DNA of 64,000 nt from the NCBI GenBank assembly GCA_945957605.1, contig CAMFLR010000003.1, positions 62,001 through 126,000 on the forward strand, given 5' to 3'. Source of the DNA: an uncultured Isosphaeraceae bacterium. GTDB lineage: Bacteria; Planctomycetota; Planctomycetia; Isosphaerales; Isosphaeraceae. Each line of letters starts with the position of its first letter. The first letter of the stretch is position 1. Under the pieces are notes generated by a model. The model did no database searches, was not told the DNA's origin, and saw only the letters and a list, made by a program, of their open reading frames with translations. Shown piece by piece: positions 6,185 through 6,393 of the stretch. Both the position numbers and the translations under genes were made by a program.

Positions 6185-6258
6185 GGGCGTTTAGCTCAGT
6201 TGGCTAGAGCACCAGCTCGACACGCTGGGGGTCGTAGGTTCAAGTCCTACAACGCCCA
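6185..6258 (+). tRNA. tRNA-Val, anticodon GAC
   Basis: A 74-nt cloverleaf folds perfectly: acceptor GGGCGTT/AACGCCC, D stem GCTC/GAGC, anticodon stem CCAGC/GCTGG, T stem GTAGG/CCTAC with loop TTCAAGT, discriminator A, and no encoded CCA. The seven-base anticodon loop TCGACAC gives anticodon GAC (6219-6221), reading GUC and GUU. Position 33, almost always U, is C here (6218). A rho-independent terminator follows about 40 nt downstream. Confidence 0.93.
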
Positions 6259-6295: not shown

Positions 6296-6345
6296 ATCCT
6301 CGGCAACTCTGCCAGAATCTTCTGACAGGCTGCCGAGGATTTTTT
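6296..6345 (+). terminator. Rho-independent terminator after tRNA-Val
   Basis: ATCCTCGGCA (6296-6305) pairs perfectly with TGCCGAGGAT (6331-6340) and is followed by a run of six T. It ends the tRNA transcript. On the other strand it lies just beyond the stop of the convergent permease gene, where the T tract is weaker, so it may act in both directions. Confidence 0.85.
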
Positions 6346-6393
6346 GCGCGTAGTGAAACCAGAGATTTCACGGTCGTTCGGAAGCGGTGGCGA

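What the first reader, a model, noticed from the sequence alone, without database searches (positions are those of the whole stretch)
6217..6223. tRNA-Val with C33 in the anticodon loop
The cloverleaf is perfect, but the loop reads TCGACAC, putting C at position 33 where U is nearly universal in elongator tRNAs because it forms the U-turn. Either the tRNA works with a changed turn, or this copy is specialised or inactive.
Basis: seen in the sequence. Interest (0 to 1): 0.55.

Follow-up and report, generated by a model that had tools for sequence, protein, structure and literature searches.

The report
Valine tRNA lacking the universal U33
The valine transfer RNA in this bacterium really carries C instead of the near-universal U just before its anticodon; the same change recurs in this one tRNA in many kinds of bacteria, so it most likely works, and it raises the question of why this tRNA alone can drop that base.

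Summary
The tRNA-Val(GAC) at 6185-6258 has loop T32 C33 G A C A37 C38 (6217-6223). It is the only GAC tRNA found in its genome, where 49 of 50 distinct non-array tRNAs have U33. C33 is inherited: 31 of 33 family genomes with a detectable GAC tRNA have it, so sequencing error and a one-off dead gene are out. Of genomes with a detectable GAC tRNA, 68 of 118 Planctomycetota and 31 of 67 Actinomycetota have C33, 4 of 88 Bacteroidota, and in Pseudomonadota and Bacillota only the chosen centre genome. In cellular genomes C33 is almost confined to this anticodon: 42 of 44 non-U33 hits in 118 class genomes. C33 tRNAs often pair U32 with A38; U33 ones almost never do, which argues that C33 is used as C, not edited to U. 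Best reading: a working elongator turning its loop with C33. Tuning of decoding is inferred. No description was found in the open-access library, but the key 2007 survey was not readable.

The parts
6185..6258 (+). tRNA-Val(GAC), 74 bases, CCA not encoded
   Evidence: ARAGORN; Rfam RF00005, 68.3 bits
6212..6216 (+). anticodon stem, 5' side (CCAGC)
   Evidence: sequence and script
6217..6223 (+). anticodon loop TCGACAC
6218..6218 (+). C33, where U is near-universal
   Evidence: conserved in relatives
6219..6221 (+). anticodon GAC
6224..6228 (+). anticodon stem, 3' side (GCTGG)
   Evidence: translation; found upstream of the tRNA in 14 of 30 loci searched, own included
6298..6346 (+). inverted repeat followed by a T run downstream, likely terminator
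   Evidence: read directly in the sequence, not scored

Best explanation
This is a functional elongator tRNA-Val, the GUC/GUU decoder of a planctomycete, that uses C33 unedited. Shown: C33 is real, conserved in the family, recurs in many bacterial phyla, and in cellular genomes is almost confined to the GAC valine tRNA. Inferred: the loop turns without the bond from U33 N3-H to phosphate 36, helped by the 2'-OH of residue 33 touching N7 of the purine A35; C33 cannot pair with A37, so the loop stays open even where U32 faces A38; the net effect is an anticodon-specific tuning of how the tRNA holds its codon.
For: Specificity: 42 of 44 non-U33 rows in 118 class genomes are Val(GAC). U32 with A38 in 59 of 173 distinct C33 sequences and 0 of 79 U33 ones, which fits C33 acting as C. 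Bacterial ValRS determinants A73, A35, C36 (PMC9976931) are present.
Against: No expression, modification or decoding data. The loop-opening idea has exceptions: UUGACAG with U33 exists and folds to a three-base loop in the model, G897 has UUGACAA, and the window's own loop has C38. C33 is rare in Pseudomonadota, Bacillota and Bacteroidota, so it is not generally favoured. In yeast tRNA-Gln, a U33C mutant has a phenotype that the authors take as poor CAG decoding (PMC3664417, passages).
Confidence: 0.72

Rival explanations
1. C33 is tolerated, not selected: a near-neutral state that the GAC valine tRNA can bear because A35 is a purine, inherited by clades and now and then gained or lost.
For: Distribution follows clades (whole families all C33 or all U33); both states occur at the frr site in one family (L047 against the rest); 32 and 38 vary with C33.
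Against: Other tRNAs with a purine at 35 that fit the pattern (Val UAC and CAC, Ile) do not show C33 in the same genomes; recurrence in many phyla in one anticodon only.
Confidence: 0.35
2. The C is edited to U after transcription, so the mature tRNA has an ordinary U33.
For: tRNA C-to-U editing exists elsewhere (recalled: position 8 in Methanopyrus, position 32 in trypanosomes). No RNA data here exclude it.
Against: 59 of 173 distinct C33 genes would become U32 U33 ... A37 A38, a loop absent from 79 distinct U33 genes and seen in 1 of 461 U33 genomes of the listings (G897). No such bacterial editing is known to me.
Confidence: 0.07
3. C33 protects this tRNA from an anticodon-loop nuclease or toxin that needs U33.
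For: tRNAs on viral contigs carry C33 with many anticodons; phage anticodon-loop changes are proposed to evade nucleases (PMC10264068, passages, which do not mention position 33).
Against: No nuclease specific for this tRNA is known to me; the restriction to one anticodon in cellular genomes across phyla is not obviously explained.
Confidence: 0.07
4. Inactive or specialised copy.
For: The changed base alone.
Against: Sole GAC gene found, conserved, all stems intact, sometimes in three tandem copies.
Confidence: 0.03

Closest known systems
Eukaryotic initiator tRNA-Met with C33
   Same: A natural, working cytosolic tRNA with C33 in place of U33 (PMC9023262, passages)
   Different: An initiator with CAU anticodon, not an elongator
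tRNA-Cys(GCA) with C33 in Sulfolobales
   Same: A clade-wide C33 in one elongator tRNA (PMC7668247, passages)
   Different: Archaeal, one clade, another anticodon; that paper could not isolate it
Natural A33/G33 mistranslating tRNAs (bacterial tRNA-ProX, a tRNA-Ser with G33)
   Same: Natural loss of U33 (PMC11415595, passages)
   Different: Dual-identity or ambiguous tRNAs; here anticodon and valine identity agree and the base is C
tRNA-Ala(GGC) with tuned 32-38
   Same: An anticodon-linked loop feature that sets accuracy; a change at 32:38 lets tRNA-Ala read GUC (PMC11415595, passages)
   Different: Tuning there is at 32-38, here proposed at 33 and untested

Membership tests
bacterial tRNA-Val(GAC) | complete tRNA cloverleaf | tested here: met
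   Rfam 68.3 bits, full length; ARAGORN
bacterial tRNA-Val(GAC) | anticodon GAC in a 7-base loop | tested here: met
bacterial tRNA-Val(GAC) | ValRS identity: A73, A35, C36, G3-C70 and U4-A69 (listed in PMC9976931) | tested here: met
   A73, A35, C36 and G3-C70 present; position 4-69 is C-G, not U-A, read from the sequence
canonical U33 elongator tRNA | U at position 33 | tested here: not met
   C at 6218
eukaryote-like initiator tRNA with C33 | CAU anticodon | tested here: not met
   anticodon is GAC
edited tRNA (C33 to U33) | U at 33 in the mature RNA | not testable with these tools
   no RNA data; indirect evidence against

The most novel reading that the evidence does not exclude
Across Bacteria, tRNA-Val(GAC) follows its own loop rule: C33 is a selected, repeatedly evolved tuning base that gives a U33-independent turn with altered decoding of GUC/GUU, so 'universal' U33 is broken systematically for a single anticodon.
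Probability: 0.4. Interest if true: 0.68.

Novelty: new variant of a known kind. Interest (0 to 1): 0.5.

Why it matters
U33 is taught as near-invariant in elongator tRNAs because it makes the U-turn. A common sense codon read by a C33 tRNA in more than half of sampled Planctomycetota and nearly half of sampled Actinomycetota with a detectable GAC tRNA gives a natural experiment, with near-identical C33/U33 pairs, on what U33 is for and why only one anticodon can do without it. It also bears on annotation rules and tRNA design that fix U33.

Tried and rejected
Sequencing or assembly error: rejected, independent genomes agree. A second, U33 GAC gene in the genome: none found, though about 5% of the genome may be missing. 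A simple 'avoid the three-base loop' rule: fits most sequences but has exceptions (UUGACAG; G897 and G894), so it is kept only as part of the story. Order of change from an frr tree: unresolved, so I do not say whether U33 in G020 is a reversal. Twelve of 45 family genomes gave no GAC match; for eight of these twelve I read the best or next-best tRNA hits and found Val(TAC), Ile or Arg genes, so whether GAC is lost or unassembled there is unknown; this includes G001, the only other genome of the genus in the sample. Literature: eight searches listed no paper that I recognised as describing C33 in bacterial tRNA-Val(GAC); I read passages of eight papers (and the listings). Saks and Conery 2007, the likeliest place, is not held. 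An early frr translation was in the wrong frame and was redone.

Full report
ARAGORN finds one tRNA in the window, tRNA-Val(GAC) at 6185-6258 on the + strand, and Rfam matches it end to end at 68.3 bits. The loop at 6217-6223 is T32 C33 G34 A35 C36 A37 C38. Acceptor stem, A73 and the 5-bp anticodon stem are intact; CCA is not encoded (read).

In its own genome (G000, 8.8 Mb, 95% complete) RF00005 gave 71 matches. From the loci around them I read 75 distinct tRNA sequences: 73 have U33. Of 50 outside a tRNA array, 49 have U33 and the exception is this one. Of 25 in a dense array on contig C2, one, Val(TAC) with loop CCTACAA, has C33. The other two non-array valine tRNAs, TAC and CAC, have U33. 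No other GAC gene was found. GTC is the commonest valine codon in 30 long ORFs of the window: 527, against GTG 470, GTT 283 and GTA 78 (the ORFs are mechanical).

Relatives show that it is inherited. Of 29 relatives' loci with a GAC gene that I read, 25 have C33 and 4 have U33. In the class sample 45 genomes belong to the window's family: 31 have C33, 2 have U33 (G012, G020, both with A32), and 12 gave no match. The family is probably Isosphaeraceae, because the frr piece of G015 is identical to that of Paludisphaera soli. frr is found by tblastn in 14 of the 30 loci searched, own included, always near the tRNA; among them is L047 (G020), whose tRNA has U33, so both states occur at the same site. 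The frr tree is too poorly resolved to order them.

Prevalence was taken with one pattern that fixes or frees position 33. Class: 97 of 297 genomes with C33 and 136 with another base, all of them T; I saw no genome in both lists. Planctomycetota: 149 genomes, 118 with a match, 68 C33 including the window's, 50 U33; one genome (G884) has both and is counted as C33. Actinomycetota: 129 genomes, 67 with a match, 31 C33 including the centre. Bacteroidota: 128 genomes, 88 with a match, 4 C33 including the centre. Pseudomonadota: 140 genomes, 99 with a match; Bacillota: 129 genomes, 65 with a match; in both, C33 only in the centre genome, which was picked for having it. C33/U33 splits within listings were read by eye and agree with the tallies. 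Genomes whose GAC tRNA does not fit the pattern are missed.

ARAGORN calls all 118 tRNA-Val(gac) with C33, and all 53 other tRNAs in those stretches have U33. Titles place 110 of the 118 in 24 named phyla. Many are metagenome-assembled contigs, so single odd placements, such as a 'Chlamydiae' contig (L086) whose tRNA equals one from Conexibacter (L124), should not be trusted.

Specificity: a pattern for any anticodon with A, C or G at 33 gave 44 rows in 118 class genomes: 42 are Val(GAC) with C33, one is no tRNA by eye (G099) and one is a broken-looking Lys-like sequence (G076). In 50 genomes chosen because they have C33 Val(GAC), the same pattern gave 51 rows, all of them that tRNA. The pattern covers only tRNAs with a GAGYR D-stem end and an RGGTC variable loop; other tRNA classes were tested only in the window's own genome and in the tRNAs that happened to lie in fetched loci. 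Viral contigs differ: there C33 turns up with many anticodons.

Neighbouring bases: among 253 distinct GAC sequences held, U32 with A38 occurs in 59 of 173 with C33 and in none of 79 with U33; one further row is a miscalled G33. Fisher p is about 8e-12, not corrected for common descent. In the pattern listings, 2 of 461 genomes with U33 alone have A38: G894 with G32 and G897 with U32 (read by eye, seven genomes shared counted once). ViennaRNA extends the stem of UUGACAA by two pairs to a three-base loop, while UCGACAA keeps a five-base loop. So C33 and A38 go together as if C33 keeps the loop open. Against this, UUGACAG, which folds the same way in the model, is found with U33 in Bacteroidota, Bacillota and viral contigs, and the window's own loop has C38, which pairs with nothing. 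The pairing also speaks against C-to-U editing, since editing would create the avoided loop.

Reading: a working GUC/GUU decoder with an unusual turn. That C33 is selected for tuning is inference from anticodon specificity and recurrence; tolerated drift is the main rival. The U-turn details (N3-H of U33 to phosphate 36, 2'-OH to N7 of residue 35) are recalled. Natural exceptions to U33 in print are the eukaryotic initiator (PMC9023262), Sulfolobales tRNA-Cys (PMC7668247), and rare A33 or G33 tRNAs (PMC11415595), all seen as passages. Eight searches did not list a paper describing the bacterial valine case, but the library is open-access only and the 2007 survey of anticodon-dependent conservation was not readable. 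It may be visible to anyone who tabulates a tRNA database. I therefore call it a new variant of a known kind.

Noticed in passing
L383 7131-10297 (own genome C2:265130-268296): An array of about 25 tRNA genes with an HNH-like ORF overlapping its region (L383 7757-8584, minus; HNH by eye). It holds the genome's only other C33 tRNA, Val(TAC), and the only Lys tRNAs I found; not all tRNA candidates of the genome were scored.
   Followed up: partly
L178-L361 (viral contigs): tRNAs on viral contigs carry C33 with many anticodons (Thr, Glu, Val UAC and CAC, Gly, Cys and others), often with C32, unlike the cellular genomes read here.
   Followed up: partly
L037 and L043 (G027, G010): Three tandem copies of the C33 tRNA-Val(GAC) within about 420 bases in two relatives.
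   Followed up: no
G520 and G598: A near-identical natural pair of actinobacterial Val(GAC) genes: in the 40 bases shown they differ at position 33 (C or T) and at one D-stem base. Good material for a test of C33.
   Followed up: no
G884: The one genome in the phylum sample with both a C33 and a U33 GAC tRNA, on different contigs; a second gene or contamination.
   Followed up: no
G001 (same genus) and eleven other family genomes: No GAC tRNA was detected in 12 of 45 sampled family genomes; mostly fragmented drafts, loss or missing sequence not decided.
   Followed up: partly
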